NCBI GenBank assembly: GCA_947034895.1
Contig: OX344762.1
Coordinates: forward strand, 1,428,501-1,492,500
DNA: 64,000 nucleotides
Direction of reading: 5' to 3'
Source of the DNA: Rhytidiadelphus loreus
Lineage: Eukaryota > Streptophyta > Bryopsida > Hypnales > Hylocomiaceae
The position numbers and the translations under genes are program-made. The notes below the pieces were generated by a model. It was not told the DNA's origin. It saw only the letters and a program-made list of their open reading frames with translations, and made no database searches. Numbering within the stretch: position 1 is the first letter of the stretch; each line of letters opens with the position of its first letter. Of this stretch, positions 5,500-56,941 are shown one piece after another.

Positions 5500-5518
5500 C
5501 AGGGTTGACGAATTGGAG

Positions 5519-5680
5519 CGTCCAGCCCAAAATCGCGTCCAAAAAGCGGATGTCCAGACGTGGCGGACGCGGAGGACGCTGGGTAAAACGGAGCCGTCCG
5601 TCTGATTTACCTCGGGGTAAATTCAGGCGTCGGAATTCAGACGCTGCCTTGGCCGTCCGAATTCCGACGCAGTCGCAACT
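5519..5680. repeat. CGTCC/GGACG array, left end of outer element
   Basis: GC-rich subterminal zone starting 19 bp inside the left end. It holds many copies of CGTCC, GGACG and CGTCGGAATTC-type words in both orientations, and the palindrome TTTACC-TCGG-GGTAAA at 5606-5621. ORFs across it are by-products of composition. Confidence 0.8.
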
Positions 5681-5699
5681 GTCCTCCTGAATTGCAACC

Positions 5700-6042
5700 C
5701 TAGTTGAAACATGATTAACAATCATATCATCATGATCCTCTAGCCTTTCAAAAGCATTTCAATTACCACAAGTATGAAGCCTAATTTTTTAATTTTTTTC
5801 ATCATCTTGCAATATATCATGCTTCATTGTAGAAAAGCAACATACAAATGACACAATCAATTGATATTTTGGATTGAAATCATCTTTGGTTAAGTGCCCC
5901 CTTCAAAAAATAATGGTATTACCACCATCAATAAGTTTAGGAGTATTACAATCAAAGTCTCTAACAATCAATTGTCAATGCGACAATCTGTGCTTTATGT
6001 AATATGAGCACATGAACATTTAAGCCTATGTCCTTTCTATTT
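5700..6042. other. AT-rich spacer inside outer element
   Basis: No gene seen. It lies just 3' of the minus-strand transposase gene and presumably holds its 3' untranslated end. Confidence 0.4.
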
Positions 6043-9000
6043 CTAAGGATTGTAATCAAAATCTCCTTTCACCTCTGCCCTACTACTCTCACACCCATTT
6101 CCCAATCTTGCGTCTTCATCGTCGGATGTGTCTTCCATATCATCTGATGAAGAGCCTAGACATGTCGTTCTTCCCTCTTGTACTTGCGTGGATGAAAGGC
6201 TTCTTCTTCGTTTGTCCTTTTTGAGTTCTTCTTTTACTCTTAATAAGGATTTCCCATTTTGTTCCTTAATGCCAACAACACTTTTCATTTTCCTCTTTGA
6301 AACATGTGGACGTGCATCAAGAGGGTTTCCAATGGCTCTTGTTTTTTTCAGCGGGGATATTGCAAAAGGTTGCATGACTCTCTTCTTATTGGCTCTAGGT
6401 GATCCCCCACCCTCTAATTTTATTGTTGAGGGCCCTCCATTGCCTCCATGAATGATTATCTTCGGTGAGATTGAAGACTGTGGTTTAGGCACTGACATTG
6501 TTGGGGGCCATCGTGGTGGTGCATTACGAGAATGCCGAATGAACATTGAAGCCAATGTCTCATCCTTGTCATCGTCCGTGGATGATAAAATACCTTGACT
6601 AGGCCGCCTTTCTTTTGAAATATTTGCAATCTGTTTTCCAAGCCCTAAGCTCCCAACGCCATCCGAAATTTGACTAGGGGTTTTCAATTGTGCACGTGGA
6701 GGGATGCTAGATGGTGGTACTTCAAAATCTTGCATGAGTTCCTTCTTGACTTCTCCATTGATGCACGAAATTGGACTTCTAAACCACACCACACATAGAT
6801 CAACATTCTTCTCCGCTTCATTTGCCTTAGGGTTTGGAATACTTGGGTGACCACTGTTCGCACTTGCCAATACAATGGTTGACTCAACACTCGTGTTGCC
6901 AACGTTCATTTTGACATTCACCTCCCAAGGCTCATGTCCTCCCTTGCCGATGTGTTTGTCATTTTCTTCCGCTCGCAACACTCCTCTAAACGGAGACTCA
7001 AGTGGAAAAAGATCTTCATCCATTCTTTGAGTCCCATCATTGGGAATCGTTCTCTCATTAGCCTCCACATAAGCGTCTTCTTTTTCCGATAGAACTTTTT
7101 CGCTACTCATGAACCCACTTCCATCCACAAATCTAGCTATGGAAGGTACATCTTCATCATACCCATCATTATCCTCATCTAATGGAAAGTCATAGATGTC
7201 TTGATCATTGGCTCGAAGATCTTCATTGGGCCGACTTGGGCTATCGAACATTTCATAATCAAAATTGTGCCCGTCGTAATTCATGGCATCTTCGTCATCC
7301 AATAGAGGCCCAACTGACCCACCATCCTCCTCGTCTTCCGAGATAAACCCCTCTGAATCTTCCGAATCCACGTTGTCATCGTACCACTTCTTCTCATCAT
7401 TTTCCTTTGATGCTGCCAAGACTTTGGAATTGGTGTATACATACACCAAGTCTGCCGCCCTTTGCGTTGTCAACTTGTTCCGAGATTTGTTGTAAACAAA
7501 AGAATAACTACTCCAATTTCGTTCACATGAAGACGAGGATACCGGTTGTGCCAAAATTCGCTTGGCTATTGGAGCAATTCGCTATTGGAGCAATGAGCTT
7601 CCCACATGCACCTTCAAAATCCCACCAAGCATGCGCCGACAATTGTTGCTCATCCGGGTTCAACATGTTGTGAAACGGAGGTTCCCTATGGCGGAAGGCT
7701 ACAAATTCTTTTACCACCGAGGCGTATTCTCCTTGTTTGCAAATTTTCATTAGAACACGCTTGCATGCGTCCATTGCATCTTGGTCGTCGGCTAGATCCT
7801 TATCATGTAGAAGGTATGGATTCAAAAGAGCTCCTGCATAATGTAAATCTGTCTCCCCCATTTCACAGTGCTTGAAAAAGGATCGCTCCAATGGTTCGGC
7901 GAGGTTTGTTGCCAAACAAAAAGGATGCCCTTCTAGGCTAAGGACATGTTTCTCTAAATTCCTCATAATATACAACACCTTACCCATACATGGCGTCTTT
8001 GCATCCAAATCACGTAGACCATATACAACGGGGGCTACTAATTCCCGCAAATTTGTCCACCGGTCCCAATAATGCTCCTCTAGAATGAACCTCTTCACAT
8101 TACGAGACTTCGTGCAAGATTTGGCTTTGTCATTGTCGTTTAGTGTATTCACATATGCCACCCACTGTGGATCCACCACACTTTGTTGCAATGCTCTTTT
8201 GACTTCCAACAAACGATCAATCATGATAAACACAGAGGCAAACCTTGTTTCCACCGGCTTCAACAAATTGTACTTTGTCTCATACTTCCGAAGTATAGCA
8301 AGTGGCATGTGTCTTTTCTTGAAGAAATTCACTACGGTTTGGGCTCTCTTTACCGACTCTTCAATCCATTTCTCCTTTCCCCAATCTTTGAGCAACAAAT
8401 TCAAGGCATGCACCACGCATCCTTGAAAAAAAATGTATGGATATTTGTTTGTTACCAAATTCCATGCTGCCGGATTCACTGGAGCATTGTCTGCGCTCAC
8501 TTGCACCACATTCGTAGGACCCACCTGCTCTATGAATTTTTCTAAAATTGTGGCCAAATATTGTGCTGTCTTTTCCACCCCACTAGTATCCACCGATCCA
8601 AGGAATTGCTCACCCGCTGAAGATACAAGCATGGCATTGATCAGTGGACGGTTTGTAATTGAGCTCCATCCATCAATGGACAATGTTGCTCCAAACTTCC
8701 TAACGCTGTCTTCGGTCCTTCTATGCACCTTCCCCACGACATCTACCTTAGTTTGATCAAGAAATTTATGCCGTAGATCATGATATGATGGCGGAGTGTA
8801 GGCCATACCATACTCGGAGGGTTTTTTCACCGCTTCTCTGAAAGCTACGTTTCAGGCCACTGAAAAGGGTATATTTGCCGCATAGAAGAAATTGGCCCAC
8901 ACGGCCACACTACATTCAAATTCTGTTTTTTTGTTTCTTGAAAGCCATCCAAAAGCCTACTTTGTGTTGGAGGCCTACTGCTTGAGGCCCTGCGAATGTC

Positions 9001-9398
9001 ACGTCCGCTACATGTTTGCATACTTGGAGTTACTTCGGAACCCCCTCCAAGGCTCCAATGACTTCTTCCGGTGTTGTACACGAATCTTCTTGCATAGAAC
9101 GTGGCATGCCCCTCCCATTTGACATATCGCTTTCAACCATAGGCAAGTTGTTGCCATCCACATTTCTGCGAACAGGTCTTCGTGGAAATGCCCCATTGCA
9201 TCGAAGAAATAGACTTCGAGTTTCCGATGACAATTTCGGACACAAACTCACTCCCCTATCACGAGAACCGGCAATCGATTAATATCCTAAGTGACTCAAC
9301 ATACGGCTTGTTTTCTTTGTAAACACGTTGTTGCAAGCCTTGCATTATATTTTACTCGCCGAAAGGACGACATACCAAGAGGCAAAATCCTTGCTCAT
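6043..9398 (-). pseudogene. hAT transposase of the outer element, decayed
   Basis: The gene reads leftwards from ATG at 9398. It starts with a BED-like finger (CKAC...SHLGY, about 9345-9285), then a region matching WANFFYAANIPF, then the RNase H-like core: SIDGWSS (first Asp), SADNAPVN (second Asp), GCVVHALNLLLKDW, and the dimerisation region SSSCERNWS...YVYTN. A charged tail of about 450 codons follows, unusual for hAT. Lesions: stops at 9345-9347, 9279-9281 and 8852-8854, a frameshift near 8890, and a 16-bp tandem duplication at 7564-7595 that breaks the frame just before the dimerisation region. The family cuts and pastes elements with 8-bp duplications in the nucleus. The enzyme cannot be made whole from this copy. 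It is closely related in plan to the transposase at 39676-42962. Confidence 0.88.
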
Positions 9399-9419
9399 GG
9401 TTACAAATTCCAAACTTGA

Positions 9420-9730
9420 ACTTCTTCAAATTCGCAAGTTTTTGAAAATGTAAACACAAGTGAACCAATGTTTAAAATTGGGTTTAGGGTCGTGCACAAA
9501 GCCTTGAAATTCAAGGCTCCCCTTCCACCAAACGATGCATTACCAAACAAAGGACACAAAATAAATTGCAGCTCCTAGCCCTTGGAAATCGTAGTATTCA
9601 GTGGATTTGGAGTGCCTTCATACGCCTTGTTTCTTCTACTTATACTTTGCAGCTGAATACAGGTGGCGCTGACCGTTATTCAAAAAGATGAATTTTAAAA
9701 ACAGTACCAACGGACTCATTCTCCCCGAAA
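9420..9730. other. Promoter-side spacer of the outer transposase
   Basis: Lies between the minus-strand transposase ATG and its upstream array. A minus-strand TATA-like word (tataagtag, near 9645) lies between the two, fitting an array-TATA-ATG order. No other gene seen. Confidence 0.4.
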
Positions 9731-9732
9731 TG

Positions 9733-9900
9733 GCCCGTCCGATTTGACCATCCCATCCGAACATTTCGTCGGATTGGGCCAGCTCGTTGGAACATGCCAG
9801 CCCGTCGGAACTGGCCGTCGGAAGAGGTCGTCCAATCTGACCAGGCCGTCGGATCTAGGCAGCCCGTCCGAATTGGCCGTCGGATCAGCCCGTCCGATCT
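9733..9900. promoter_or_regulatory. CGTCGGATC/CGTCCGAT array upstream of outer transposase
   Basis: Dense copies of 'ccgtcggatc', 'cccgtccgat' and 'cgtcggaa' in both orientations, about 340 bp upstream of the minus-strand transposase start. The same motif set occurs at both ends of the outer element and upstream of its other genes, but not in the nested element. It is probably a binding array for a regulatory protein or the transposase. Confidence 0.65.
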
Positions 9901-10000
9901 TTTTATGCGGATTCGGGACTTTTCGTAGTTCAGTTTCAAATAGAACTGTTTCACACTTTCAGCACAAGTGTCCAAGGCTTATCCAAACATTTGGACTTGC

Positions 10001-10046
10001 CTTCTTCTAATCGGGGAGGTCGCGGGTTCAAATCCCGGCTCTGATT
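10001..10046 (+). other. tRNA-like fragment (possible SINE head or tRNA relic)
   Basis: 'cttctaatcggggaggtcgc' followed by 'gggttcaaatcccggctctg' resembles the anticodon-loop to T-arm half of a tRNA, with a good pol III B-box (GGTTCAAATCC). I cannot pair a 5' acceptor half, so it is not called a tRNA gene. Confidence 0.3.
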
Positions 10047-10331
10047 AATACCTTCAAGCATGCGAGTGGTGCACAGCACTAGTTGTGCAAAGCAATACTA
10101 ACAAGTTTGTAGGAATTGATTAGAGCCTTTTGTGCCAAAAAAATTTGGAGTTCATATTTTTGCAATGAAATAATGTTACAATGGAAAAAATACTACATAT
10201 TCTATGAACAAATCATTATATCATAGTGAAAGAAGAAAAGGCGACATTTGACCAACCGATTCAACAAACTAGCATGCATTGAAAGATCCATACATATCAT
10301 GAACATTGAAATATAAATTAATTAATAAATT

Positions 10332-10337
10332 AAAAAA

Positions 10338-10402
<65 letters not shown>
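10332..10402. repeat. A-tract followed by (TA)n microsatellite
   Basis: About 24 A residues followed by about 23 TA dinucleotides. Such A-then-TA tracts can mark a retroposed 3' end; with the tRNA-like B-box about 290 bp upstream this could be a decayed SINE, but the body between is not recognisable. Confidence 0.9.
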
Positions 10403-10411
<9 letters not shown>

Positions 10412-10809
10412 AAAAAGACATACATACGTAGATATTAAAGGCAAAACAAGACATGCCGTGATTACAATTATTTACTACTATTTTCACCTCGTGACATTAA
10501 AACAAAAGTCTATCGAGTATAGAGTTCTATTTCTTCTATTGCAATAGACCTATTGGTCCATTTCTATTTAATTCTATCATTGTTGCCATCTCCCGAACCA
10601 CCAGACTGACCAGAGGACCCCTCTGGATTGCGTTGCGCCACTTGAGCGGCAATCCTTGGACTTTCGCGACGAGAAATTCCCCCAGGGCTTGTTGAGCTTA
10701 AGAACCGTTTTGATTTGGTTGCCCTGTCAACAACGACAAATTGTCGTATTGTTTCCGGAGAATAGTCATCGTCATCTTCAATCTTCCGCTTCTGTTTGCG
10801 CTTCGAAGT

Positions 10810-13800
10810 CTAATCCACATCTATCACCTTTAAGGCTCTCAGAGCAGCGTCCACTCGATTTACCAACACATTCACCATATGGTCATCACTAGGGTTGTTT
10901 ATCCTAAACCCTTCGGTGACTCCTTCCAATAGGAACGCCCTCCATTGACCTATGATGTCGGCCACCCTCCTATCAAATGCCCCTGCCACCTCCACGAACG
11001 AATCCCCTTTGTTTGATTCTCCATCCATTTCCACCTGAACACGAATTGATGCAGCTTCTTCCAGCTTAGATAAGAACAGTGCCCTGCCTATGGGAACGTG
11101 ATTGTATGCCTCGTACTGTTCACTGAAGCCAAGAGGATGCTTCACCTCTATCCAATTGCCATCTGGCCCTTTCTGTACTTCTTTTTCGGGAAACCGGAAA
11201 AATTTATGGTGTTGCATGCTCCAATGCCCTCCCATACTAAGACAAAACAATTCACGAGCCTCGCCATCATCAATGGCACGAGCCCACAACTCCACTTCCA
11301 TATTTTGGGTCATCCACATGAAGGAATCCACCGGTTGCATGAATGCATCATACAATTCATGCTTCTGTTCCTTTGGATCCCATATGAGGGGTTTCCCCCA
11401 ATGCGAATAATTCTGGAATTTGTATGGCCCTTGGTCAAGTGGAAGAGTCCATCTATTGTATTCGTGGCCGGGGGGCATACCTTCCAAGATGCCAAACATC
11501 TCATAGAACCTAGGACTCAAAGGAGAACAGTACTTGGCACAAGCGGATCGAAAAAGAGATGCTTGCACAACGCATTTGATATGAAAAATGTGGCGACAAT
11601 GGCCCATGGTGAAGGCTCCTTCAGGCCCAAAAGGACCTTGGCAAATGCTACAATGACCCTTCAACATTTCATTGCCTGGATTAGAACCATGCACAACTAT
11701 CTTCTCGTTCTTCTTGATGTGTGCTGAAAGCGTTGTGTAAGGAGTCCATCCTTCCTCTACTTCAAAAGTCCAATTGATGTCGCGATTGTGGGCTAGCGAT
11801 TCCTTCTTGGCGTGGTTCAACCGCTCGTACATGGCATCCATGGCATCCATGTCTCCCCAACATGTCATTGGCATAGACCCCCAAGAATGTTGTTCGACCG
11901 CACTTTTGAATTTCTTCAAAGCAGCCTCAACGACATTGCAATCTTCATCCGACTTCATTGCAAGGGTGCGAATCCTGATCATTGCCTGAGATGCTAAGAC
12001 GGTTTGTCTTGAAGTTGTTGTATCCATGTCAACCACCGAGACTCCGATCCGCTCGCCGGTAGACATTCATCCATGTTCTCCACTCGTTTCATCCGGTCCA
12101 ACCTCGATTGAAGAAAGGCATTTTCTTGGTTTACCTCATTCAATCTTCGATTCAACTCGCTCCAAGTTGGAACCTCATCCACCTTTCTGGTTTCAAGCTC
12201 CTCCACTGCTTTGGCCTTCTCAAATGGAAGAGAGAGTTGATCGCTTTCTTGAGTTTCTTGCGACCTTGGTAGTTGGGTCTCCGCTGTAGAGAGGCCCTTT
12301 TCTTCATTTCGTTCCTTCAAATATTTGTCGCTATACTTCCTCCTTGACGCCACCAATTGCCTTCCCAATGACTCACAATTTTCAACGACCCTTCTATACT
12401 TTTTATTCTACTCGTCATTCTTCTGCTCCAGCTCCACGATTGTCTTCAAGTAGTTGTACTTCTCATCAAGAAGTGTTAGCGCTCCACTAGCAAACTTGTG
12501 AAAAGTCAATCCACCCTTCAATAGTGGATGCGATAATGTGGATAAATTTTTGGCCAATTCCATAGTTAATGGGGCCATTTCCGCTACAGCTTCAGCAGAA
12601 CATGTTATTGCTTGAGCGGATGTCACAAAATCATAAAGCCCAAGTTTGTTTTCGGTTGCCGTAGAGCACTCGGCCTCGTTCACGGGTTCACCTTCTCTCG
12701 ATCCATCCATTTGAGATGGGTACTCAACTCCGCACCTAAGTATGATTTCAAGATGCTCTAGATTTGGAATTTGACCCACATATTGCAATCTTCTTGGAGT
12801 TAAAGTGCACAAGAGCGGATACTTACGCACAATCTCCTCGCCATCAATATTGGAGGTCGTTGCCACGTTTTGAAGTCGCTCTACGAACAGACCTGACGGT
12901 TGAACTTCACGGATCGGGCTCAATATTGGACTAGGCGGCGTTGGCGAGTCCACGTTTGGAGGAACGTACTTCAAACTATCGAGAGCATCGCTGTCTATAA
13001 GCCATTCAATTGTAGCATTTACTCTTGCAACTTTGTCTTCATCCATGTCTTCTCGCGACAAGGAAGAGGGGGCAACTTCTTTCACGAGGTCGTGCTTGTT
13101 TGGAGCAATGCTTTGCTCACCCGTGATTGGTACATGAACCGAGGTGGGTAAACAAGTCTCCGGATCCTTGAAATTGACCTTCCGAAATACACCTCTCGAA
13201 GAGGCATTGATGGCCTCCGCTCCTAGTTGTGTGGGGTCCAACTGTACTGCGTTGCCTACGCCCTGTGAAACCTTCATTGTAGGCGTTCTAGTATTTTTGA
13301 ATACTATTTTAGATTCAGCCGTTTGTGCCCCGTGGTTATATAAATCAGGAATATCCTTCTGATTTTTCGGAAGTTGAAGCGGCAATTGCGATGTCGTTGG
13401 AAACGTGCTCCAATCCACCTTCCGACCCAATATGAGTTCTGCATACACCATAGATGCCGTGCTGTAATTTATGTATCCTTTACTCCTTGCCTTGTTGCCG
13501 AAGAGGGCCTTCCACACCTCGTCTAATCGATGTACAAAATGACTATCCTTGCAAGTCCACGGCTTACAATTGAAATATCTTGTGTGGGCTGCGTGGCAAT
13601 CCCGAGGCCACAACTTGTCAATGTGGTACATTTTGACAAATTGTTTGCACATTTTAGAGCTCCAATATTCGGCCTCCACTTTCTCCCAGTCAGGCTCCGC
13701 TTTAATGTTCAGATCATCTAAAATGTCATACTGCAACGCATGTCCGGCCCCCCTTGTTTTAATTTTCTTCGGTGGAGGTTGTGTTGAAGTTGTCCCAATA

Positions 13801-13826
13801 GCCCCTCCATCACCTTCCGCGGCCAT
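10810..13826 (-). pseudogene. VDW-coiled coil-RING protein, outer element
   Basis: The gene reads leftwards from ATG at 13826. Residues about 55-145 carry the shared VDW domain: CKQFVKMYHIDKLW, then an E.W..L stretch, MVYAE and VDWSTF. A low-complexity acidic middle and a coiled coil (about 12400-11990) follow. Next comes a RING-like finger (about 11660-11520): CSIC, GHCRHIFHIKC, ACAKYC. A C-terminal part of about 240 residues is shared with the gene at 18683-21162. RING proteins are commonly ubiquitin ligases. Lesions are an in-frame TAG at 12408-12410 and a frameshift near 12000-12060; otherwise the frame holds for about 1,000 codons. I do not recognise the VDW domain as a named family. A CGTCGGATC array lies about 210 bp upstream. 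Confidence 0.72.
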
Positions 13827-14037
13827 GCTTGGTACTTTGAATTGAAGAGCAATTCAAAGTAAAAAATCCGGTCAATTGAAATATATGTGTAGGTAATTTA
13901 AATCTGCCAAAGTCACACCGTAATAAAATATGTTGGACCCCTTCTCTCCACCAAGTAAGAGCAACTAGCGCCAGAGGCAACAGCAACACATCTGACTTGG
14001 CAAGCTTGGAGAGAAGAAGTGAAAAGAAATGAAGGGC

Positions 14038-14336
14038 TCGTCCGATCATATAGCCGTTCGAAACCAACCCTAATACCGGTTCGATTCCGGACTGCGAACG
14101 GTCCGACTTTGGGCCGTCGGATGATCGGATCGGACCTGGTCGTCCGATCAGGCGGACCGAACAGGCCGTCGGATCGAACGCTATTGTTGGATCGAAGACG
14201 CCGGGGCCGTCGGATCAGGCCGTTGGATCGGGCCATCGGAAGACCAAGTTTCGGAGTCGCTTGCGACCGATTAGGCGGACCGAACAGGCTGTGGCCGTCG
14301 GATCAGGTTGTCGGATCAGGCCGTCGGATGGATTTT
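14038..14336. promoter_or_regulatory. CGTCGGATC array upstream of outer VDW-RING gene
   Basis: About 300 bp with many copies of 'gccgtcggatcaggc', 'cgtccgatca' and 'ggtcgtccg'. Repeat orientation is mixed, so the array can form hairpins. It lies about 210 bp upstream of the minus-strand gene starting at 13826. Confidence 0.65.
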
Positions 14337-14542
14337 AGGTCTTCAGGTCTCCGATCAGGCCATCGTCTCTTCTGCACGGACCTACTGAACTGTCATCCTC
14401 CAACTGTGTACGCACTGTTCAAACAACGAATCCTTGAAATAGTTAAATCATTGTAAAAAATAATCAATGAAATGTAGAAAGCATCCAATGTGTGAAAGCT
14501 TATTGTTCATTTCCTTCCCTACATTGTGAGACTGTTTTTAAT

Positions 14543-14575
14543 GCTAAACCCTAGACCCTAAACCCTAAACCCTAC
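14543..14575. repeat. Short telomere-like CCCTAAA run
   Basis: Three to four units of plant telomere-type CCCTAAA, one with a substitution. Short runs like this are common as telo-box elements, and also mark repaired breaks; here it lies between two divergent element genes. Not a telomere. Confidence 0.6.
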
Positions 14576-14579
14576 AAAT

Positions 14580-15674
14580 TATTAAATTTACATATAAAAT
14601 ATTCATGTGCTCAACAAAAAATTGGTGCAGCATGCAGCATCACTTTTACGATTTCACCGAGTATTCCCACCATCCCAATATCCACTAGTAGCAATTTTGG
14701 CTCGCCCTCTATACATGGTTACATGGATACATTATTACATTGCAATTTGAAGACATTTATTTTTTTGGATCCACAAAGTACATGACTTCTTTTATGATTT
14801 TAAGATATGATTTAAAAAGTCAATGTGGAAATGTTGGTTGAAATGTAATTTGAATGTAGAAACCATTGTGTAATTGATCCATTGAACTTGTAGTCTACAT
14901 GTGATAATTTAAATGTACTATACATGTGAACCTTGTCGACTAATTAGTTATTCATTTCTATGTTTCCGGGTATGAATTATTACATGGCACCGTGGAAATT
15001 GCAGAAGTGAAAGGTTGTCCCACAAAATTGACAATTGAATATGATGATCACTCATGTACAAGAATTAATAGAAGGAGAACGTCACATATGATCATTTGAA
15101 AGTTTTTTATTTACTTGTAAAATGTACTACTCATTCATGAATTCATGACATTGTAATATGGAAAATTTGAACCATATACCCTATATTGATATATTTTTTC
15201 ATTTCATTGAGAAGGGGGAGAGTGGGGCCAACTTTAAGGCCTTCACCAATTTTTCTAAACTTGAATTCATTAATCTATTAATTTTGGTTTCATTAATTAT
15301 ATGTATGACGAAATGTTAAGCTTTCATACCTTGCAATATTGCACAAAAATATATTATATTATAGAATTATGGATAATTTCTTTATTCAAAGTTCTAGCCT
15401 ATTAGAACATGTTCTTGAGTGTTGCCAAAATAAATCTATAAATCTTTAGAGTTCATTTTTGCATGCAATTGCTAGTGAAATTGATAACTATTAACTAGAA
15501 AAGAAGTTCTACAGGTTTTTGTGGAACTGAAAGAGAGTGGGCACATTTGAGCAAAAAATAAATATTTCTTCAAATAAATTCTTCTAGGTAGTTTTTCTAC
15601 TTTTACATGGTCAACAATTATGGAATCTCTCTTTCTTTACTCAAAAAATGCAGTTGTAAGTGCCCCACAAGGCC
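14580..15674. other. AT-rich spacer inside outer element
   Basis: No gene seen. It separates the two divergently oriented VDW genes of the outer element. Confidence 0.4.
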
Positions 15675-15682
15675 ATAACCGT

Positions 15683-16253: not shown

Positions 16254-16261
16254 ATAACCGT

Positions 16262-17888: not shown

Positions 17889-18060
17889 CAGGGTTGTCTA
17901 CCCGGACAACTCGACAACTCGACAAACTCGACGTCGAAGACGTCTAGTAGAGGGGCCCGTCCGTCTAATAGAGTCAACTTTACCCTTTGACTTTTCTGGA
18001 ATTTACCCCCCATTTACCTAGGCTTACCTGGCTGCCATGTGGCAGCCGCGTGGCAAATGT

Positions 18061-18475: not shown

Positions 18476-18482
18476 GTTCGCC

Positions 18483-31300: not shown

Positions 31301-31302
31301 TG

Positions 31303-37871: not shown

Positions 37872-37873
37872 TT

Positions 37874-39053: not shown

Positions 39054-39385
39054 AAGTCGCCCTTCTTTCCCCCGAGGTCGCCCATGGCACTCGAAGTCTC
39101 ACGTCTCCCATGAAACCCGAAGTCGCCCATGTGGGACCCGAAGTCGCCCATCTGAGACCCGAAGTCGCCCATCCGGGACCCGAAGTCGCCCTCTCTGGAC
39201 CCGAAGTCGCCCCCCTGGATCCGAAGTCGCCCTCCCTGGACCCGCGTTTGCCCTATTTCAGACCAGAAGTCGCCTGCCGGAACCCGCGTTCGCACCATGT
39301 GACCCAAAGTCGACTACTGCAAAGGCGTGTGCCTCCATATGTCTGGAGGTGGACCAGCGGTCGGGTAGGGCGACCTCGGGTGTAA
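39054..39385. promoter_or_regulatory. GC array upstream of nested transposase
   Basis: Units 'gacccgaagtcgccc' separated by short spacers, ending in 'gggcgacctcgggtgt' of opposite sense (39367-39382). A TATA-like 'ctataaatg' (39448-39456) follows, then the transposase start at 39676. Confidence 0.7.
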
Positions 39386-39447
39386 TACAGTTTGGTAGCG
39401 GCGCCCTAAAACCATCCTTGGAGCGTGTGGAGGGAAGACCGAAAGCA

Positions 39448-39456
39448 CTATAAATG
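39448..39456 (+). promoter_or_regulatory. TATA box of nested transposase
   Basis: 'cactataaatgtagag' sits between the GC array and the ATG at 39676, about 220 bp upstream. Confidence 0.55.
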
Positions 39457-39675
39457 TAGAGGAACAACATTGGATTTCCATTGCTTTGTTGATGAACATA
39501 TGGCTTGGATCCTCTCAAGAGGCTTCATGCAATGTTATATTCTTCAGAGGGCAACAACCTTGCTTTGAGTGGTTAGAAAACTACTCGAAGCGGTGGCTTT
39601 GTCATAATTTTTTTTTCCGAAGCACTTGGGTACATATACATTTCGGTTTGGAATAACGCATATCAGATAAACAAT

Positions 39676-42600
39676 ATGGCAAACCGAGGAGCGGGGAGGA
39701 GGACGAACATAAATGATACTTGAAGAGCCACAAAGGAGTGGGATCCCTGGTTGGCTATTGAAACAAACCCCGCTTGTTCCGCAAATACGAGGACTTGTAT
39801 TTTTTGTGGTTGGAACAAAGTTTTCGTGCGGAAGCGGGCATTTGGTCACTTTGGTTACCTCCGTACATCAACAGTGGAACGTTGTAAACGTATTCCATCC
39901 GTAGTCCTCGAATTATTCAGAAACTGTGAAGGGATTGTACCAAAAGAAATGAATTTGGAGGAGATGCATGGAGTAGATCTTGAGGTTGATGTTGTTGCTG
40001 AGTCCGTTGCAGGGTATACTGTGGATGCATCAGTGGAAGGGTCTGTGGACCCAAGCGACAGGACAGAAGCACCTAATGCACCGCCTCGTAATCCAGATTC
40101 AACGAATTCTACTCCTGTGACGGTGAGAAGGATGCGCTCAACCTCGATTTCTCGTCAACAAAGCATGGATGAATCATTCCGGGTCAATGAAAGACAAAAC
40201 TTGGACAGACTATGGGCTTCTTTCTTTTATGAGGCTAACATTGCATTCAATGTGGTGCGGCACCCAGCCTTTGTGAATGCTGTGAAAGCAACTTCGAAAT
40301 GTGGATTTCCATATTCCCCGCCATCGTACAATGCGGTGCGCACTAAACTACTTGCTGTGAAGAAGGAGGCTGTTACAAAAATGGTCAGTAGTCGAACAAA
40401 GAGTTCTATTACCCAATATGGAGCCACTATCTGTTCAGATGGATGGTCAGATACAAATCACCGTCCCTTGTTGAATATGATGCTCGTTTGCCCTGCGGGT
40501 GATGTCTTCCTGGGATCGGTTGACACCACAAGAGAGAGGAAAGACATGGCGTATACGGTGAATACAATGGCTACCTACATAGAGCAGGTGGGACCAGGAA
40601 ATATTGTCCAATTGTGTACAAACAATGCTTTCGTAATGACAGGGTCAATGCGCGAGTTGCAAGCAAGGTATCCCCACATGTATACGCAAGGATGTGCCGC
40701 ACATATATTGGACTTACTTTTGGAAGACTGGAGAAAGGAAAAAAGGATCAAAGATCTAGTGGATAAGGCCAGGGCAATTGTGAAGTTTATAAAGAAATAC
40801 CACTTGACTTTGGGTCTTTTCCGTAAGTACTCGCCGAAGAAGTCATTGAGACTTCCCGCGGCCACACGCTTCGCAGTGCATTTTCTCATGATAGACCGTT
40901 TGGTAGAGTGCAAACAAGCGCTTCAATTCGTGGTGGGGGACGAGACGTATATGCCATTTGAGAATAGTTTGGTCAGCAGAACAAACGGACTCATTACAAG
41001 AGAGCGGGCCCGTAAAGCGCGAGAGGACATAGTTTCGGAAGTGTTTTGGGTGGAATGCGGTAATTTCCAGCACATGGTTCTTCCAGTGATTCTTGCTCTG
41101 CGCCAGTTCGATGGCAAAATACCGGCGATGCCGAAAGCTTGGATAATAATGAGTAGCCTTCGTCAGCACATGTGCACTTTAAAGGAGGCTCGTTCTTTCT
41201 TGATGAGCAGACCGCGACGAAGTTCCTAAAACAATTTGATGCTCGTTGAAAGTTGATGCGCACGGACCTCCATTATGCAGGGGCATTGTTGAACCCGTAT
41301 TTGACAGATGTGGAAGAGCTTCATAACAATGGAGAGGCAAAGCGGGCATTGAATCGAGTCATCAGAAAATTGAGCGGACCATTGAATGTGGATGAAGATG
41401 AAGCAATTGCTGAGTTGACAGAATTTGAAGAGAAGTCGGGTCCCTTTGATCCATTACAAGAGGCTCCAGATGTTACTCGATGTAACTTGTTGCCTCATCA
41501 ATGGTGGAATCGTGTGGGTGGGAACGCTCTTCCAAAAATAGCAAGGAGAGTTTTGTCTCTGACATGCTCAGCATCATCTTGTGAAAGAAACTGGAGCATG
41601 TATTCGTTTGTACACGATAAAGTGCGTAATCGCCTAGCCACAAAGAAGGCTGAGATGTTGGTGTATATCTACACCAACAGCAAATTGGAACGTGAAAAAC
41701 AAGGACACAATCCAGCACTATTCTACGAAAAGTACCTTGTAGATGGAGATACAGATGAAGAGAATGAGGAACCATATTCTTCGGGGGACGAAGATGAAGT
41801 TAGGTTTAGAGATTTGAGAGAAGAACAGAGACGTGTGGTAGTAGAAGAACGCCTCCGTGGAAATAGGTGGGCTGGTATGGTGCCCTGTGTAGGTAGTCCT
41901 CCACGAGGACGATACCACAACACTTTCGTGGGTGATGATGATGGATTGAGCTCTCCAGAGGCGTCGCACCACCGCAGAGACGAAGCCCCTCATGTGTCGG
42001 CTTGGGATGCATTTCCGGTAATCAATGCAGACCCAACGAGGGAAAGAACTCCTGATGACAACAATGACGGTGTAGATATTCCAGTGGCAGATGAAGTGGA
42101 GCTTGTAAGGTCTCCAATTGCCACATGTCTGCCGCCTAGTATGCCAATGAACCTCCGAAGTGGTGCACAAGTTAATGTACAGGGTGAAAGGCAAGAAGAG
42201 GTGTCGCATATTGAAGAGGTACCTGCAGTTCGTCCAAGTTTAGCACCAACCAACAACACTGCAACAGAAACTAGGGTGTACGATTCAGATGCGCCATTGC
42301 AAGTGGTATTCAACGAGACCCGTACCCGTGGGTCCAATCGCCCTGCAACTGTAGACATTGCCACAACATCGAGGATACTACCAACTCCTCTAATAAGGTC
42401 GCCGACACATAATGATCTACGACAAATCGTTGATGAAGGAGTGCATGGCTCAACTCCACAACCTACTCCGGCCTCATTGATGTCAAGCCCTGGAGAATCA
42501 TCCAGGCGATCGCGTGAACACTCCAAATCAGGAAATAAACGAACCCGCAAGATGCAAGACAGACTGACACGGAACCCCAAGCGTCAAAACCATGCGATCC

Positions 42601-42962
42601 ATCCATTTGTCATTGGAGAACGAAATTCCACTCGTAATCCTTGGCCATCAAGCGCAGCAGCGAGAGCAGAGCGTCAACATGTTGGGCACCAGGTGCTTGA
42701 GCGACCGACAGGCCCTATTATCAATGGAACCACTGATGCATCGAGGCCGACAAAGCGATTAGTGCTAGCCAAAGTTGTTGGTGGTTTAGAAACGCAAGTG
42801 CGAAATTTGAACTCTGAGGTGGAACGTGAGGTGATCCTTCAACCTACAAGCAGAGAGGATGATGAAAACGAGGTCTCAGGAGCTAGTGACAGTAGTGGGC
42901 CACATGAAGACACCGACCCCAATGCAGATGAAGCGGAAAGCGATTCTACCTTCACAATGTAA
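39676..42962 (+). pseudogene. hAT transposase of the nested element, decayed
   Basis: ATG at 39676 starts MANRGAGRRTNIND, then TGA at 39721-39723. A BED-like finger follows (CIFCG...HFGYLRTSTVERC), then WASFFYEANIAF. The RNase H-like core shows SDGWSD (first Asp), GCAAHILDLLLEDW, and the dimerisation region SSCERNWSMYSF...VYIYTN. A Ser/Arg/acidic tail of about 400 codons follows, as in the outer transposase. Lesions: the TGA above, a frameshift near 41200-41225 with TGA at 41247-41249, and Asn at 40621-40623 (CTNNAF) where the outer copy has the catalytic second Asp (SADNAP). This copy therefore cannot be an active enzyme even if the frame were read through. Confidence 0.88.
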
Positions 42963-43487
42963 TGTGTTGCATTATAGATGTGGAGGCCTTCAAATAGTAC
43001 TATAAGGATTTAACATCAATGCCTTGTAGTGAAGATTTGTTGCCAAAGTTTGTAATGAAATAGGTAGATTTTGAATTTTGTGTAGTCCATCACTTAGCTT
43101 CACAAAGTCAGGAAGATTGTAAAAGGTACTTTGGTGTTGACGATGATGATTAATGAAGGTATTCGTATTTTTTGCAAATAAATGTGCAATTTCAAACAGG
43201 AGTGGTCTTGGTATTCAATTGTGAAGATCATCCCTATGTATGTACGCAGTTCCATTTAAATTAATATGATTATTGTCCAAGGTTTTTATTATTATTATTA
43301 TGTTTTAGGCTTATGAATTGATTGTCCCATGATATATCATTACATAATGCATGTTCATTTGCTTTGGTACGTACCGAGCATATAATTCAATGCTTATATA
43401 TTGCCGATTTGCCGTGGAATGTGTTGGTTGAAGAATAAATATTGGAAAAAAAATGTTGTGGGGGCCCCAGACTTGTAGCCCATGAAG
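42963..43487. other. 3' spacer of nested transposase
   Basis: No gene seen. AT-rich, with a (TTA)n run near 43290. Confidence 0.4.
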
Positions 43488-43685
43488 TAGGACCCGCGGT
43501 CGCCCTGGATTTCAGACCCGCAGTAGCCCTGGATTCGGACCCGCAGTCGCCCAGGATTTTGGACCCGAGGTCGCCCTACCCGTGGTCGCCCCCTACCCGT
43601 GGTCACCCCCCTACCCGCGGTCGCCCCTACCCGTGGTCGCCCCCTACCCGCGATCGCCCCCCTACCCGCGGTCGCCCTTCAGGAA
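43488..43685. repeat. GC array, right end of nested element
   Basis: Units 'acccgcggtcgcccc' and 'acccgtggtcgcccc' in tandem, mirroring the array at the left end (18061). The palindrome TTTACC-AAGG-GGTAAA follows at 43720-43735, then TCGACAACTCGACA words and the terminal CAGGGTTGTCT in reverse at 43856-43866. Confidence 0.75.
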
Positions 43686-43874
43686 GCACGCCACGTCACA
43701 GCCACGTAGGACAGTCCGTTTTACCAAGGGGTAAAAAAATTTGAAATCCGAAATCCGTACACGACAACAAAAACCGCCCTTACTCGACAACTCGACAATT
43801 CGACATGCGACATGCGACGTCTATTAGACACAAAAACTCGAAATTCTGTCAGACAAGACAACCCTGCACACTAT

Positions 43875-44129
43875 GGCCATGACCCCCAACATGGCTCTCA
43901 AAACGTTGGAGGCTCTTATTATGGCGATTCAACTCAAAGAGGATCACTCCATGGTGATTCAATTCCTCCTCCAACTTTTGGAGGTCCTTCCTCCGCAAAT
44001 TATGGACGAGGAAGTGGGCAAAGCGGATATGTTCCCGACTACTATGGCGGAGGACCATATCTCGGTGTTTATGGTGGTGGTCCTACAGGCCCAAGCCAGA
44101 GAGATGACACGGATTCAGATTCCGAATGA
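43875..44129 (+). pseudogene. VDW-GlyTyr gene, 3' part
   Basis: This is the continuation of the gene at 17139-17888, in the same phase, after the right copy of the CACACTAT duplication. It encodes a Gly/Tyr/Ser-rich tail (GHDPQHGSQNVGG, SYYGD, GQSGYVPDYYGG) with an acidic end (DDTDSDSE), and a stop at 44127-44129. The two halves share the same tail composition (YDPPHGSYASHY before, YYGD after). The Gly/Tyr-rich tail could be a low-complexity interaction segment; no domain is recognised. Confidence 0.75.
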
Positions 44130-45660
44130 AGCCGAATCAAACACTAATACACTATTGTATTGTTTGTCTTACAATATGGGCTCTAAATTTAGATTTAGTT
44201 GTTTTCCATACAATGATGCAATATAGAATGTAGCAAGCATAGTGTAATGGTGTCAATGAGTAGTCGTCAGTCGTCACGTACAATGCAAAACTGCTACAAT
44301 TGCGATGTATTGAAATATATTATTAGAATGATAGATTTCTCATGTTCATGGTATTATTGAATGCCATTGCTATGCAATGGATCAAGCCATGGTGTTTTGC
44401 AAGTTAAGTATAGCAATGGCCCAGCTTTTACCATTTTGTCATTCGAATGTGAAAATGTGAATGCACCATCGTAGATGGCATGTTTAATTGTTTATCCCAG
44501 ATGTCCATGGAAAATATTGAAGTGCTTCAAACTTATTGTTACCTAATTTTTATTTTTTAAAAAGCATAAGGTAGCATGTTATATTTTGTAGACCCTCCTA
44601 CATAAAGTAAATTGTCACTTATTAGTACACCTATATCCAACACACCTTGAGCCTTGTGAATTGTGATGGACAAAAATGTTTGGAGTCACGGTTTCAATAT
44701 TTGGTAATCTTCCTCTTCTTCCTATGAAAAACATAAAGAAAGAGTGCTTAAATTTAACTAATGTAAATGCATTCCTATTTTTTCTATTTCCAAAATTGCA
44801 TTCAAAATTTCATAACTAATTCCATGAAGCTTCATGTACATAATAGGAAAGGACTTGATTTACAAGTCAATTTTCTCAATATATCAATGAAATTTCCTTG
44901 AAAAATACTTGAAGTTGTTTCAATTCTTTGAAATTTAGTTGCGTCCCTTACATGGTGTAATTTTGTTTTGTGGACCTCCTCCTTTAACGAATTTCGTGAT
45001 TTTGTCAAGTAAAGGGGAACAAAATGAATTTTGGGTGGTCTCATTTTTTGTTGAAATTTTCAGGAATTTTTTCATAAGATAGATAAATTGATGAGTTTTT
45101 AGGGAATATATATTATGTTTTTGTTGGTGTCCGTGCGCAAAATTTTTTGCACCATAACCTATTAACTTCAAAATGGGTGAGACCGAGCAACCCAAAAAAT
45201 CCACTAGAAATTTGAATCAAAAATGAATTTTTTTTTCTTGTATATTATATTGGATTTTTCTAAATGGGATGCTTTGATTCATTCCAATTGGATTCATGAT
45301 GCGAAAGTTATGGATTTTCTTGTTTTGTGGGCTATCATAGGATTATCTTGAAAGAAATTCTTTTCTTCCACTTGGAATGCTAATTCTTGATTTTAAGTTA
45401 CAAACTTTGAATGTTCGTATCGTGGAAAGTATAATCTAAATGGAAAATTTCATTGTATCATTAGCTTGAGTGAAGAATATTGCATGCAAATTGTCCATTT
45501 GTTTCAAGCAAAAAATAAAAGAATATTGGATGCATTGGTTTAAAAGAAATATTTTTATTAAAATAAATAAAAATCTCCATATAAACTCTTCGAAATTGTT
45601 GCAAAAATGTGAGGCCGAAAATGGGCTTCTTAGGAACTAAAGGATTAAGGGGTGAAAATT
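44130..45660. other. AT-rich spacer in outer element
   Basis: No gene seen. It contains the recurring intergenic module at about 44990-45210. Confidence 0.4.
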
Positions 45661-45664
45661 GAAT

Positions 45665-45850
45665 TTATCGGAGCCGTCCAATCTGTCGAACTACCGCGCC
45701 GTCCGATCTGTCGCACGGCAGCCCGTCCGCCTCGCGGGGGCCGTCCGATCTGTCGGCCACATCGTGGGCGTCGGATTTCTGACGCGGACCGTGCGTCGGA
45801 AAAAGGGCGTCGGAAAGGTATAAGAGAGTCGGACGGGCCCGTCCGATCCT
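45665..45850. promoter_or_regulatory. CGTCCGATC array upstream of outer kinase-like gene
   Basis: Units 'gccgtccgatctgtcg', 'gggcgtcggat' and 'gggcccgtccgatcc'. A TATA-like 'ggtataagagag' lies inside it at 45817. The gene start at 46059 lies about 210 bp downstream. Confidence 0.65.
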
Positions 45851-46058
45851 CACTTTTGTTTTCCCCCTTGCATATTGCAAGAGTGAAGCGGAGAGCTTGG
45901 TGGTTCATGCCCCCATTGGTTCCTCTTCTTGGGAAAGCAAGAGTGCGATTTTGGGGGCCCCTTATTGCCATTTTTTTCAGTTTTGGTTCGAGTTTCACTT
46001 GAACTTGAAATTATCATTTCATTTTGCGAATATTCATTTGTACAAGAAGTTCATCACG

Positions 46059-47555
46059 ATGCCACGAACAAAGAAGGCTGCAAAGAGGAAACAAATGGAG
46101 CATGAAGGAGGTTCACACAATGAGGCAAGTAGGGACATTCCCTCTGATGCATACAAAAGATTTTTGATCAAGTTGATCGTCAATTTCTATGAGTCGGAAA
46201 CCACGATGTCACTACACAACAAATACGTTAGGTACAACGAGGAGTGCTTGCAAAAATTCAAGGCGGACATGTGGCAACTGATGATGAATGCGCTTAGCGT
46301 TCCGGAATGGCACCACGAGACGGAGAAGAAAGGCTTTCCAAAATTCTTGGAGAATAGGGTCCACGATGCATTGTGGAATGCATCAATGGTGCTAGCAAGG
46401 TATGGCTTTCAATATCGGGAAAATGATGAGGATTTTCGTGAAGTCATTCTGAAAGCTGACTTGTTTGTTGCACGATGCAAGCCGTTTGCAAAGAGCCGTA
46501 ACAGACGAGGATCTTTGGGTTGGTGGAATAGCACTGATGGAGTGGCTGAACTAGATCGGGGCAGACAACACCTCATAGCGCTTCCCGACACAGCACGAGT
46601 AATCGCTCAAGACCAAAAAACCATGAAGGGTGGATATGCAACAATTCGTAGGGTTCGAATTGAAGGGTGTCGAAAGATAGCTACATTTTGGGAGTTTGCA
46701 GCAAAGCTATCCAATCAACACCGCACACAACCTCATCTTGCGAGATTGGAACACCAGAACGAGTCAATGGCAGTGCGGATTCCACATCCTAGAGTTATAC
46801 GGTTTGCTGCAGTTCATGGAACAACAAATGAAGGGTATTCGTATTGGTGGAATGGCGGAATACTACGGTACATGATGCACTTGGATAATGATTATCCAGA
46901 CAACATTGCCATTCGGTTGCACTATTCGAGACTAACAAAGGTAGAGTTGATTGAAGCTTACCGTCTCGGACGATTTAGGAAGAAGCGCACGCAACTCGCA
47001 TGGGCATTATTGCATATCATGAATGCAGTGCACATTTCTGGACATCTTCACAATGACATCTCTTCAGACAACATAATGTTTCACTTTCCTGAAGACGAGT
47101 CACGCGTGTACATTGGAGTCTGCGATTGGGGCATGACTACCGTAGCTTCTGAACCAATGAAGTCTTTGTACACGTTTACATGTGCGAGTGACATGGAGGA
47201 GGCTTTGAGAAAGAGGTGGTGGGTGGACCCGAAGATTGCATATGTGCACAAAAGAGATGCAGATGGGTCAATCATTCTAAATCTATCACATGCATCAGAA
47301 GAATATGCGGTTTGTAAACTCGCTCAACGCATCAACAAGGATTGCATGTCTGAAGAATACTACAAGTTGCATCGGGAATCAGCTGAACTGACGAAATTGA
47401 GTCACCACGTTTTGGCCCTTATGTTTCACTCATACATGGAGCGGCCTTGCAGTGAAGGTTCGAATTACCGTGGCGATTTGTTTCACATCATCAATTTCTT
47501 TTCTGGTCAGTGCAATTGGCCTGTGCCGGATGAGCACTTCCGCCATTCATATTAG
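46059..47555 (+). CDS. Kinase-like protein of the outer element
   Basis: This is an intact 498-codon frame. I chose ATG 46059 (MPRTKKAAKRKQMEHEGG, a basic start like those of the VDW genes) over a start at 45897, which lies in the untranslated leader. After about 185 unrecognised residues come kinase motifs: Gly loop GGYATI, Lys in FAAKLSN, catalytic loop HNDISSDN (about residue 331), DWG (Asp at 356), and DPK where APE is usual. Lys, both Asp and Asn are kept, so catalysis is possible. It matches the nested gene at 29660 in plan and motifs (SYWWNGG here, TLWWNGG there). The role is unknown. It is one of two element genes without stops. Confidence 0.8.
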   Translation: MPRTKKAAKRKQMEHEGGSHNEASRDIPSDAYKRFLIKLIVNFYESETTMSLHNKYVRYNEECLQKFKADMWQLMMNALSVPEWHHETEKKGFPKFLENRVHDALWNASMVLARYGFQYRENDEDFREVILKADLFVARCKPFAKSRNRRGSLGWWNSTDGVAELDRGRQHLIALPDTARVIAQDQKTMKGGYATIRRVRIEGCRKIATFWEFAAKLSNQHRTQPHLARLEHQNESMAVRIPHPRVIRFAAVHGTTNEGYSYWWNGGILRYMMHLDNDYPDNIAIRLHYSRLTKVELIEAYRLGRFRKKRTQLAWALLHIMNAVHISGHLHNDISSDNIMFHFPEDESRVYIGVCDWGMTTVASEPMKSLYTFTCASDMEEALRKRWWVDPKIAYVHKRDADGSIILNLSHASEEYAVCKLAQRINKDCMSEEYYKLHRESAELTKLSHHVLALMFHSYMERPCSEGSNYRGDLFHIINFFSGQCNWPVPDEHFRHSY

Positions 47556-49133
47556 TAGTTCAACGTACTTTATAGTAGCATAGAACTATAGAGGTATGTA
47601 GTAAATATAGAATGAGGATGTACGCGTGCTCACTATATAGTGCCTAATTATGCAATATAGATGTATGACCATATATGTGGAATATGATAATTATACATTT
47701 TGAAAGTTCGGTATATTTGAGTAAGTACTGCTTATGATTTTTTGTCACATGAAACTATGAAAGATACATATGACTTGAATGAAAAGGGCACTACTTGTTG
47801 TTGTTGAATGCTGAGGTGACAATTAGCAAGGGTGTGTGGAGATTGTTCTCATTTTAAACTTTATAAACCCCATCGTCCAAGCAGCTTCAAACTTCAGAAG
47901 GTCATAGGAATCTCAGATTTTGAAATTTTTCCAAACAAAAATTTCTTGCTTGTCAAATATAAGTATGCCTTTGTATCCATCGTTCGGATTTTCAAAATCT
48001 CAAAGTATGTGGTGGGAAAACTGATTCAAAGATGACTTAGTGCATTGTCAATATCTGGGACATTGTGGCATAATGGCATTGCAAAAAAAATTTGGAGGTG
48101 TTAGGTGTGTTGGATTGCTTTGAAAATTGGTATGCATATGCCCAACTTCAATACCTACAGGAAAAAAATTTAATTTTATGGTGTGTAGTGCAAAAAAATT
48201 GAGCATGAGGTGGTCAAAGGCATCTGAAATTCTGGGGCATAGTGAAAAAAAAAAGAAAAAAAAGACTTTGAATGCAAATATCTCTTTATCCGTACGGTGA
48301 AAACTCCCAAAAAGTTTACCACACCCTCTCATATAAGTTCACTTCAAGATCTTATGGTTACATTTTCAAAGAAAACATTTTCACAACATCGTGAATGATC
48401 GCAGCAGGAATGGCAGTTTTCAGTGATTTTGGACCCAGAAAATGGCTCGGTCCTTTAGGGCTTAAGAAAGAAATGGTTAGAATAAAAATGTGTTGAATTC
48501 TACAGTTGGGAACGATACAGAATTTTTAAGAATTTTAATTTTTTTCGAAGTCAAATTACTTTCATGAGTTCAAATGGGGATTCTTTCAGTACTCCCTAAA
48601 GTACAAGAATGGGTTAATTTTTGGGCCTAAATCCTTGTTAATTAAAAAAATGGCATTTCTATAAAAGCCTAAAAAAATAGTACCATCGTGCATTTCGACG
48701 CTATTTAATATTTAGACCTTGTACCTTTTTCTTTTTCTTTTTGTTAGAATAATTTTCATGACCGTCAATAGGGACCTTAAACAAAACTTATTGTATACCA
48801 AAGTTCAACAATGGGTTCTATTTCTTTTCATAGCTCATTTGAACCCCTAAAGGACAAAGCGTCCCTTCCGTTGACAAATGGATTTCAGGTTGGTACCTAT
48901 GGGCTGAATTTGTCTCTTGATTTTCTTAAATTTTTTTTTAAGATAGAAAAATGGATTACCTTTGTGAAAATATAATTTTTTTCTCAATCGGTACCCCTCT
49001 ACAAAAGTTATGCCCATGTAACTCAAAACTTGGGAGACCGGGCAACACAAAGATTTTTTAGAATTAAAATTTTTTATTTCTAAATTTTTTTCACTCATAC
49101 ATTATACTTTTGTCAGGAAAAGGGCTTGATTAA
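47556..49133. other. AT-rich spacer in outer element
   Basis: No gene seen. It holds two recurring modules (48230-48460 and 48830-49060) shared with the spacers of the nested element. Confidence 0.4.
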
Positions 49134-49135
49134 AC

Positions 49136-49472
49136 CAGGCCGTCGGATCGGATGTGGCCATTCGATCAGACCGTCGGAAGAGGATATCCGATCAGACCGT
49201 CCGATAAGGCCGTCGGATCGGATGTGGCCATCTGATCAGACCGTCGGAAGAGCATACCCGATCGAACCGTTCGATTAGGCCGTTAGATCGAACGTGGCCG
49301 TCCGATCAGGCCGTCGGATCGGGAGTGGCCGTCCGATCGGCCAAGCCGTCGGAAGCCCCGGACAAACCGTCGGGCAAGATAACTTTTTATTTACCCTAGG
49401 TAAAAAAAAAAAAACTGGACATCCGGGGGGTTCCGGACGCAGACGTCCAGACGGACGTCCGAACGTCCGAAC
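49136..49472. repeat. CGTCGGATC array, right end of outer element
   Basis: Units of about 45 bp built on 'aggccgtcggatcggatgtg' and 'gccatctgatcagaccgtcg', then CGTCC words and the palindrome TTTACC-CTA-GGTAAA at 49390-49404. It runs up to the element end at 49487, matching the left-end array. Confidence 0.8.
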
Positions 49473-49495
49473 GTCTTGGCAACCCTGCTTCGATG

Positions 49496-56933: not shown

Positions 56934-56941
56934 GTGAATGT

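What the first reader, a model, noticed from the sequence alone, without database searches (positions are those of the whole stretch)
5500..49487. A conserved cargo set: transposase, kinase-like, VDW and VDW-RING proteins
Both elements carry each gene kind although they differ in array motif, gene order and extra VDW copies. A shared set implies that these proteins belong to the element's life cycle, for example helpers of transposition or modifiers of host silencing, rather than captured host genes. I know of no described plant hAT with this gene set.
Basis: inference. Interest (0 to 1): 0.96.

Follow-up and report, generated by a model that had tools for sequence, protein, structure and literature searches.

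The report
Jumping gene with four-gene toolkit
Three families of large hAT jumping genes in this genome each carry, besides the transposase, a protein kinase gene, a gene for an undescribed "VDW" protein and a gene for a VDW protein joined to a RING domain; selection has kept all of them between the two families compared, and together they likely help the element escape host silencing and move.

Summary
Two nested hAT elements with perfect 8-bp target duplications (E1 5500-49487; E2 17889-43866 inside it) each encode transposase, kinase, VDW and VDW-RING proteins. Seven of nine window genes are broken; both kinases are open. The 407-Mb host assembly holds many copies of E1 and E2 (78 to 150 scored hits per gene) and a third family, E3. 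All 79 scored E2 kinase hits have at least one partner gene in place (random mean below 0.4 per partner); E1 is similar, E3 weaker. One E3 copy carries the same four kinds in another order. Between E1 and E3 dN/dS is 0.19 (kinase), 0.23 (VDW), 0.35 (VDW-RING) and 0.21 (transposase). Family-specific motif sites lie within 800 bp upstream of 13 of 13 genes, as arrays at 12. The VDW domain models confidently (pLDDT 88.6) with no match found in the PDB. Sampled E2 copies decay mainly by C-to-T at CG and CHG sites, suggesting host methylation. I infer a toolkit acting through the arrays, most likely against silencing, as VANC does in VANDAL elements; this is untested. Other species could not be tested for co-occurrence.

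The parts
5500..17888 (.). E1 hAT element, left part (18,010 bp in all with 43867-49487); TSD CTTCGATG at 5492-5499 and 49488-49495
43867..49487 (.). E1 hAT element, right part, ends CAACCCTG
17889..43866 (.). E2 hAT element (25,978 bp) inserted into E1's VDW gene; TSD CACACTAT at 17881-17888 and 43867-43874
6046..9398 (-). E1 transposase: zinc-finger-like N-terminus (by reading), DUF659, hAT dimerisation region; broken here; family copies with frames of 1116-1118 aa
10810..13826 (-). E1 VDW-RING gene; one in-frame TAG and one frame break here; family copies with frames of 1093 aa
17139..17888 (+). E1 VDW gene, 5' part (two in-frame stops), cut by E2; 3' end read at 43867-44126
46059..47555 (+). 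E1 kinase-like gene, open frame (Pkinase E 1.2e-4, below Pfam's cut-off; the APE position reads DP in E1 and E3)
18683..21162 (+). E2 VDW-RING gene; stops and a frame break here; other copies with frames of up to 1027 aa without stop in the matched part
23625..24617 (-). E2 VDW2 gene up to its first stop; one other copy (L037) has a 498-aa frame
29660..31300 (+). E2 protein kinase gene, 546 aa, intact; Lys, Glu, HND, DWG and APE kinase signatures present
36294..37871 (+). E2 VDW3 gene, in-frame stops here; 552-aa stop-to-stop frames in many other copies
39676..42962 (+). E2 transposase; stop and frame break here; 20 of 86 scored hits have a 1128-aa frame without stop in the matched part
9735..9899 (+). 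E1 motif array (8 sites) upstream of the transposase
14038..14330 (+). E1 motif array (8 sites) upstream of VDW-RING
45674..45848 (+). E1 motif array (4 sites) upstream of the kinase
49140..49472 (+). E1 right-end motif array (11 sites)
18063..18482 (.). E2 left-end array (10 + sites) joined to VDW-RING upstream array (5 - sites)
24975..25149 (+). E2 motif array upstream of VDW2 (8 sites)
29111..29476 (-). E2 motif array upstream of the kinase (13 sites, 11 on -)
35921..36096 (-). E2 motif array upstream of VDW3 (5 sites, 4 on -)
39070..39381 (-). E2 motif array upstream of the transposase (9 sites, 8 on -)
43492..43676 (-). E2 right-end motif array (10 sites)
26655..26879 (-). further E2 array in a duplicated kinase-upstream module (others at 32507-32786 and 34006-34214, +)

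Best explanation
These are multi-gene hAT transposons that carry, in all three families examined, a transposase, a protein kinase, a VDW protein and a VDW-RING protein, which likely work together through the motif arrays at the element's ends and gene promoters to lift host silencing and allow transposition. Shown here: the shared set in three families, its co-occurrence in many copies of two of them, selection on the cargo genes between E1 and E3, family-specific motif sites upstream of every gene, and C-to-T decay in CG and CHG sites of E2 copies. Inferred: an element-encoded DNA-binding protein (a VDW protein, or the transposase's own zinc finger) recognises the arrays; VDW-RING, brought there by its VDW half, ubiquitylates local silencing or chromatin proteins; the kinase phosphorylates host or element proteins in the same step. 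Each family's motif would let its proteins act only on its own copies.
For: Same four kinds in E1 and E2 and in one complete 15.8-kb E3 copy in another order. Co-occurrence in families E2, E1 (117, 126) and, more weakly, E3 (117, 126). dN/dS E1-E3 with 95% bootstrap: kinase 0.19 (0.13-0.25), VDW 0.23 (0.16-0.35), VDW-RING 0.35 (0.29-0.42), transposase 0.21 (0.16-0.29). Divergence runs in parallel: E1-E3 protein identity is 67% kinase, 71% VDW, 59-61% RING half (37% for the first half of VDW-RING) and 71% transposase DUF659 part; E1-E2 is 23-28% kinase, 23-26% RING half, 41% transposase and 31-36% for E1's VDW-RING domain against E2's VDW domains. Motif sites lie within 800 bp upstream of 13 of 13 genes, arrays at 12; random placement of the interior arrays does as well in 542, 246 and 281 of 100,000 trials for E1 (3 of 4 genes), E2 (5 of 5) and E3 (4 of 4). 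Motifs differ: E1 CCGTCSGAWC, E3 GCCGTCCGC, E2 GGCGACNNCGGGT. Same-orientation tandem motifs in non-coding regions that diverge between families are what VANC proteins bind in VANDAL elements (PMC5735166, passages). C-to-T decay per site: CHG 0.030, CG 0.021, CHH 0.005 in 20 transposase copies. VDW-RING exists whole in other genomes: 8 of 27 relatives have the full VDW domain and a strict RING-H2 pattern.
Against: No binding, ubiquitylation, phosphorylation or demethylation was measured. The transposase could bind the arrays alone. The VDW domain has no fold match that would point to DNA binding. The array-placement test is modest; a site-level circular-shift test was weaker still (E2 426 and E1 551 of 20,000 shifts reach the observed count, run with three gene starts misplaced by up to 39 bases). 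E1's VDW has only two scattered sites and E1's left end one. 12 of 80 E1 kinase hits have neither VDW-RING nor transposase nearby; only 12 of 26 E3 VDW-RING hits and 2 of 6 E3 kinase hits found the partner looked for, partly because hit lists are capped. dN/dS rests on one copy per family, and within-family polymorphism gives only weak constraint: (N/S)/neutral 0.48-0.53 for VDW3 and 0.68-0.78 for transposase.
Confidence: 0.5

Rival explanations
1. The set belongs to the element, but it serves transposition rather than silencing. The transposase's zinc finger binds the arrays at ends and promoters, giving autoregulation; VDW, VDW-RING and kinase are cofactors that adjust transposase stability, excision or repair.
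For: hAT transposases such as Ac bind repeated subterminal motifs (recalled). The transposase has a zinc-finger-like N-terminus by reading, and arrays near the ends look like transposase sites.
Against: Sites upstream of every gene are more than ends need, and CG/CHG decay shows that silencing is a pressure these elements face. Neither excludes this rival.
Confidence: 0.33
2. Elements compete: kinase and VDW-RING act on rival elements' proteins or on element products, as a superinfection control or an addiction module, keyed by family-specific motifs.
For: One family's element sits inside another's and motifs differ by family.
Against: No sign of paired killer and immunity genes was seen; no direct evidence.
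Confidence: 0.09
3. The kinase, VDW and RING genes are captured host genes carried as passengers.
For: Plant DNA transposons often capture gene pieces (established knowledge).
Against: Selection comparable to the transposase, the same set in three families, long frames without stops in many copies, relatives of kinase, VDW and RING half each found elsewhere. A tree with host genes was not made.
Confidence: 0.04

Closest known systems
hAT superfamily (Ac/Tam3 type) DNA transposons
   Same: DUF659 and hAT dimerisation regions, 8-bp target duplications, short CAGGGTTG ends, subterminal repeats
   Different: 16-26 kb long with kinase, VDW and VDW-RING genes and motif sites at every promoter; a typical autonomous hAT encodes a transposase alone (recalled)
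VANDAL elements (MULE) with VANC anti-silencing proteins, Arabidopsis
   Same: several genes beside the transposase; same-orientation tandem motifs in non-coding regions; motif differs between families (PMC5735166, passages; PMC10398659, outline and abstract)
   Different: hAT not Mutator transposase; no DUF1985 match for VDW proteins (that VANC is the DUF1985 family is recalled); kinase and RING proteins are extra
En/Spm (TnpA and TnpD) and MuDR (MURA and MURB)
   Same: element-encoded accessory proteins, subterminal binding repeats (recalled)
   Different: other transposase superfamilies and no kinase or RING gene (recalled)
Starship and Teratorn giant elements
   Same: many genes inside one mobile element (search listing only)
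   Different: other recombinases or a piggyBac-virus fusion (Teratorn: abstract start; the rest recalled); not this gene set as far as I know

Membership tests
hAT superfamily | 8-bp target site duplication | tested here: met
   E1 and E2 8 of 8, E3 7 of 8
hAT superfamily | Transposase with hAT dimerisation region | tested here: met
   Dimer_Tnp_hAT 1.4e-7 and DUF659 4.1e-36 in copy L020
hAT superfamily | Short terminal inverted repeats CAGGGTTG / CAACCCTG | tested here: met
   E1, E2 exact; E3 left CAAGGTTG, right CAACCCTG
hAT superfamily | Catalytic DDE triad in its places | not tested
   no active-site alignment made
VANDAL / VANC system | VANC protein (DUF1985 region, recalled) | tested here: not met
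   no DUF1985 match for VDW proteins in Pfam at E 1 or 0.5
VANDAL / VANC system | Mutator-type transposase | tested here: not met
   transposase is hAT
VANDAL / VANC system | Same-orientation tandem motif arrays in non-coding regions, differing by family | tested here: met
   uniform in E1 and E3 arrays, three E2 arrays have stray opposite sites and the left-end one is in two halves
VANDAL / VANC system | Protein binds the motif and causes loss of DNA methylation | not testable with these tools
   needs EMSA, ChIP and methylation data
RING-H2 ubiquitin ligase | C3H2C3 zinc ligands | tested here: met
   strict pattern in 15 of 27 relatives of the RING half and, by reading, in E2 copy L037; the E1 window copy has one spacing off
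RING-H2 ubiquitin ligase | E2-dependent ubiquitin transfer | not testable with these tools
   biochemistry needed
Eukaryotic-type protein kinase | Pkinase profile and catalytic Lys, Glu, HxD, DxG | tested here: met
   E2: E 3.6e-15; K267, E284, D405 invariant and D381 nearly so in 20 aligned; E1 only 1.2e-4; Foldseek hits are kinases, best E 1.6e-8

The most novel reading that the evidence does not exclude
A transposon regulon: each hAT family marks its ends and its promoters with its own short-motif array, and encodes VDW-domain proteins of a new fold that read that motif; the VDW-RING ligase and the kinase then strip host silencing from copies bearing the mark, so the family runs its own sequence-keyed epigenetic switch.
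Probability: 0.3. Interest if true: 0.93.

Novelty: new variant of a known kind. Interest (0 to 1): 0.82.

Why it matters
DNA transposons are usually pictured as a transposase and little else. Here three families carry a kinase, a RING protein and an undescribed domain, kept by selection between the two families that could be compared, with motif sites at every promoter that tie the genes together. If the inference holds, it is a second, independently built anti-silencing system beside VANDAL/VANC, and it brings ubiquitin and phosphorylation into it, which makes the question of how transposons beat silencing testable with many near-identical copies in one genome.
Full report
What is there. The window lies at C2:1428501-1492500 of an unnamed 407-Mb assembly with 489 contigs. 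CAGGGTTG stands at 5500 and 17889 and its complement ends at 43866 and 49487. The flanks show perfect 8-bp duplications, CTTCGATG around 5500-49487 and CACACTAT around 17889-43866, so E2 (25,978 bp) sits inside E1 (18,010 bp without it). Pfam finds DUF659 and hAT dimerisation parts in both transposases, a protein kinase in both (weak in E1), and a weak RING in E1; the E2 RING is clear in another copy. VDW-containing frames are related to one another and match no Pfam family in the VDW part. By reading the frames, E2 lies within the tail of E1's separate VDW gene.

State of the window copies. Seven of nine genes have stops or frame breaks; only the two kinases are open. Other copies are better: 63 of 79 E2 kinase hits have no stop, 20 of 86 E2 transposase hits have a 1128-aa frame without stop in the matched part, VDW3 has 552-aa stop-to-stop frames in many copies, VDW-RING frames without stop in the matched part reach 1027 aa in E2, 1093 in E1 and 1124 in E3.

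Co-occurrence. Hit lists are capped by the tool, so these are lower bounds; the window's own copy is among the hits. E2: of 86 transposase hits 75 have VDW3 upstream on the same strand, 72 of them 3.4 to 4.2 kb away (random 1.8, any strand within 30 kb) and 85 have VDW3 and/or VDW-RING. Of 132 VDW3 hits 111 have VDW-RING. Of 79 kinase hits 74 have VDW-RING, 67 VDW3, 48 transposase, 39 all three, and each has at least one. VDW2 was not searched. E1: of 80 kinase hits 70 have VDW, 56 VDW-RING, 51 transposase, 39 both of the last two, 12 neither. E3: 12 of 26 VDW-RING hits have transposase, 2 of 6 kinase hits have VDW-RING, 23 of 45 transposase hits have VDW. Random placement gives means below 1 in every test except that.

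A third family. E1's kinase query found six hits at 67-68%. One copy (C5, 20 kb plus 3.5 kb) holds VDW(+), kinase(-), VDW-RING(+) and transposase(+) between CAAGGTTG and CAACCCTG, flanked by ATGAGGAG and ACGAGGAG (7 of 8 alike), 15,814 bp; its VDW-RING and transposase frames are interrupted too. E1 turned round reads kinase(-), VDW(-), VDW-RING(+), transposase(+), so VDW and kinase have changed places and VDW its strand.

Selection. Nei-Gojobori dN/dS between the E1 window copy and the E3 copy: kinase 0.19 over 494 codons, VDW 0.23 over 223, VDW-RING 0.35 over 974 in three parts, transposase 0.21 over 422. dS is 0.75 to 1.8, high but below saturation; decay after insertion should push the ratio up, not down (inference). 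E2 is too far for such an estimate and none was made. Among 10 VDW3 and 20 transposase copies of E2, those most like the window, the signal is weak. Kinase, VDW and RING-half relatives in a large protein collection number 64, 56 and 27, mostly on short contigs without an organism name; two kinase relatives carry one (a Bacilli MAG and a lichen-fungus MAG), which I take for contamination (inference). Of the 27, 10 show a VDW domain (9 in full) and 15 a strict RING-H2 pattern; 8 show the full domain and the pattern.

Arrays. With motif GGCGACNNCGGGT (one mismatch) E2 has 87 sites and the rest of the window none; with CCGTCSGAWC (one mismatch) E1 has 34 and the other 46 kb five. E3 has 39 exact GCCGTCCGC sites in its 15.8 kb, the window none. 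Sites lie within 800 bp upstream of all 13 gene starts, 196 to 378 bp at the nearest; arrays at 12 of 13 (E1's VDW has two scattered sites) and near the element ends (E1's left end has only a single site). Random placement of interior arrays does as well in 542, 246 and 281 of 100,000 trials; the circular-shift test is weaker (551 and 426 of 20,000 for E1 and E2). The two nearest families, E1 and E3, share the core CCGTCSG, while E2 has another motif. E2 also has three extra arrays in copies of the kinase-upstream module within large inverted repeats around the kinase.

VDW. A model of 172 residues on 46 sequences has mean pLDDT 88.6 and pTM 0.84, helices with short strands. No solved or viral structure was matched. 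A lysine-rich stretch precedes the domain in most of the members aligned. Whether it binds DNA is unknown.

Silencing. In 20 E2 transposase copies changes from C to T (or G to A) per site are 0.030 at CHG, 0.021 at CG and 0.005 at CHH; in 10 VDW3 copies 0.022, 0.027 and 0.002. This is what deamination of methylated CG and CHG would leave, and fits a plant host (inference).

Mechanism. The set, the selection on it and the array layout are shown. That the proteins act through the arrays is inferred from the layout and from VANC of VANDAL elements, where arrays of same-orientation motifs in non-coding regions are bound and lose methylation (PMC5735166, passages; PMC10398659, outline and abstract). 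A transposase-only reading of the arrays remains open.

Literature. Seven searches in an open-access library; apart from the two VANDAL papers only the listings were seen, and of long result lists only the top rows (20 of 14,295, 10 of 39, 12 of 33, 12 of 359). None of the rows seen describes a hAT with a kinase and a RING gene; subscription papers are not in the library.

Noticed in passing
window 25203-29097 and 32108-35545: Large inverted repeats (mostly 84-94%) flank E2's kinase; the roughly 0.8-kb kinase-upstream module with its array occurs four times, two direct and two inverted.
   Followed up: partly
window 52608-53193 and 56351-56936: A 586-nt perfectly complementary inverted repeat outside E1; the outer flanks show no obvious duplication.
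   Followed up: partly
window 51328-52587; C2:2495319-2497235 in the E2 copy of L041: An open frame of what looks like another repeat, similar by eye at its start to an open frame inserted inside one E2 copy.
   Followed up: no
L059:3267-4500: An array of ten 118-bp units just outside the E3 element.
   Followed up: no
E1 and E3 kinases: The usual APE of the kinase fold reads DP in E1 and E3, while E2 keeps APE.
   Followed up: no
window 14544-14574: A short interstitial CTAAACC repeat of plant telomere type (type recalled).
   Followed up: no
L001-L004: Short stretches like the kinase core in gut or rumen Bacteroidales/Bacteroidia MAGs.
   Followed up: no
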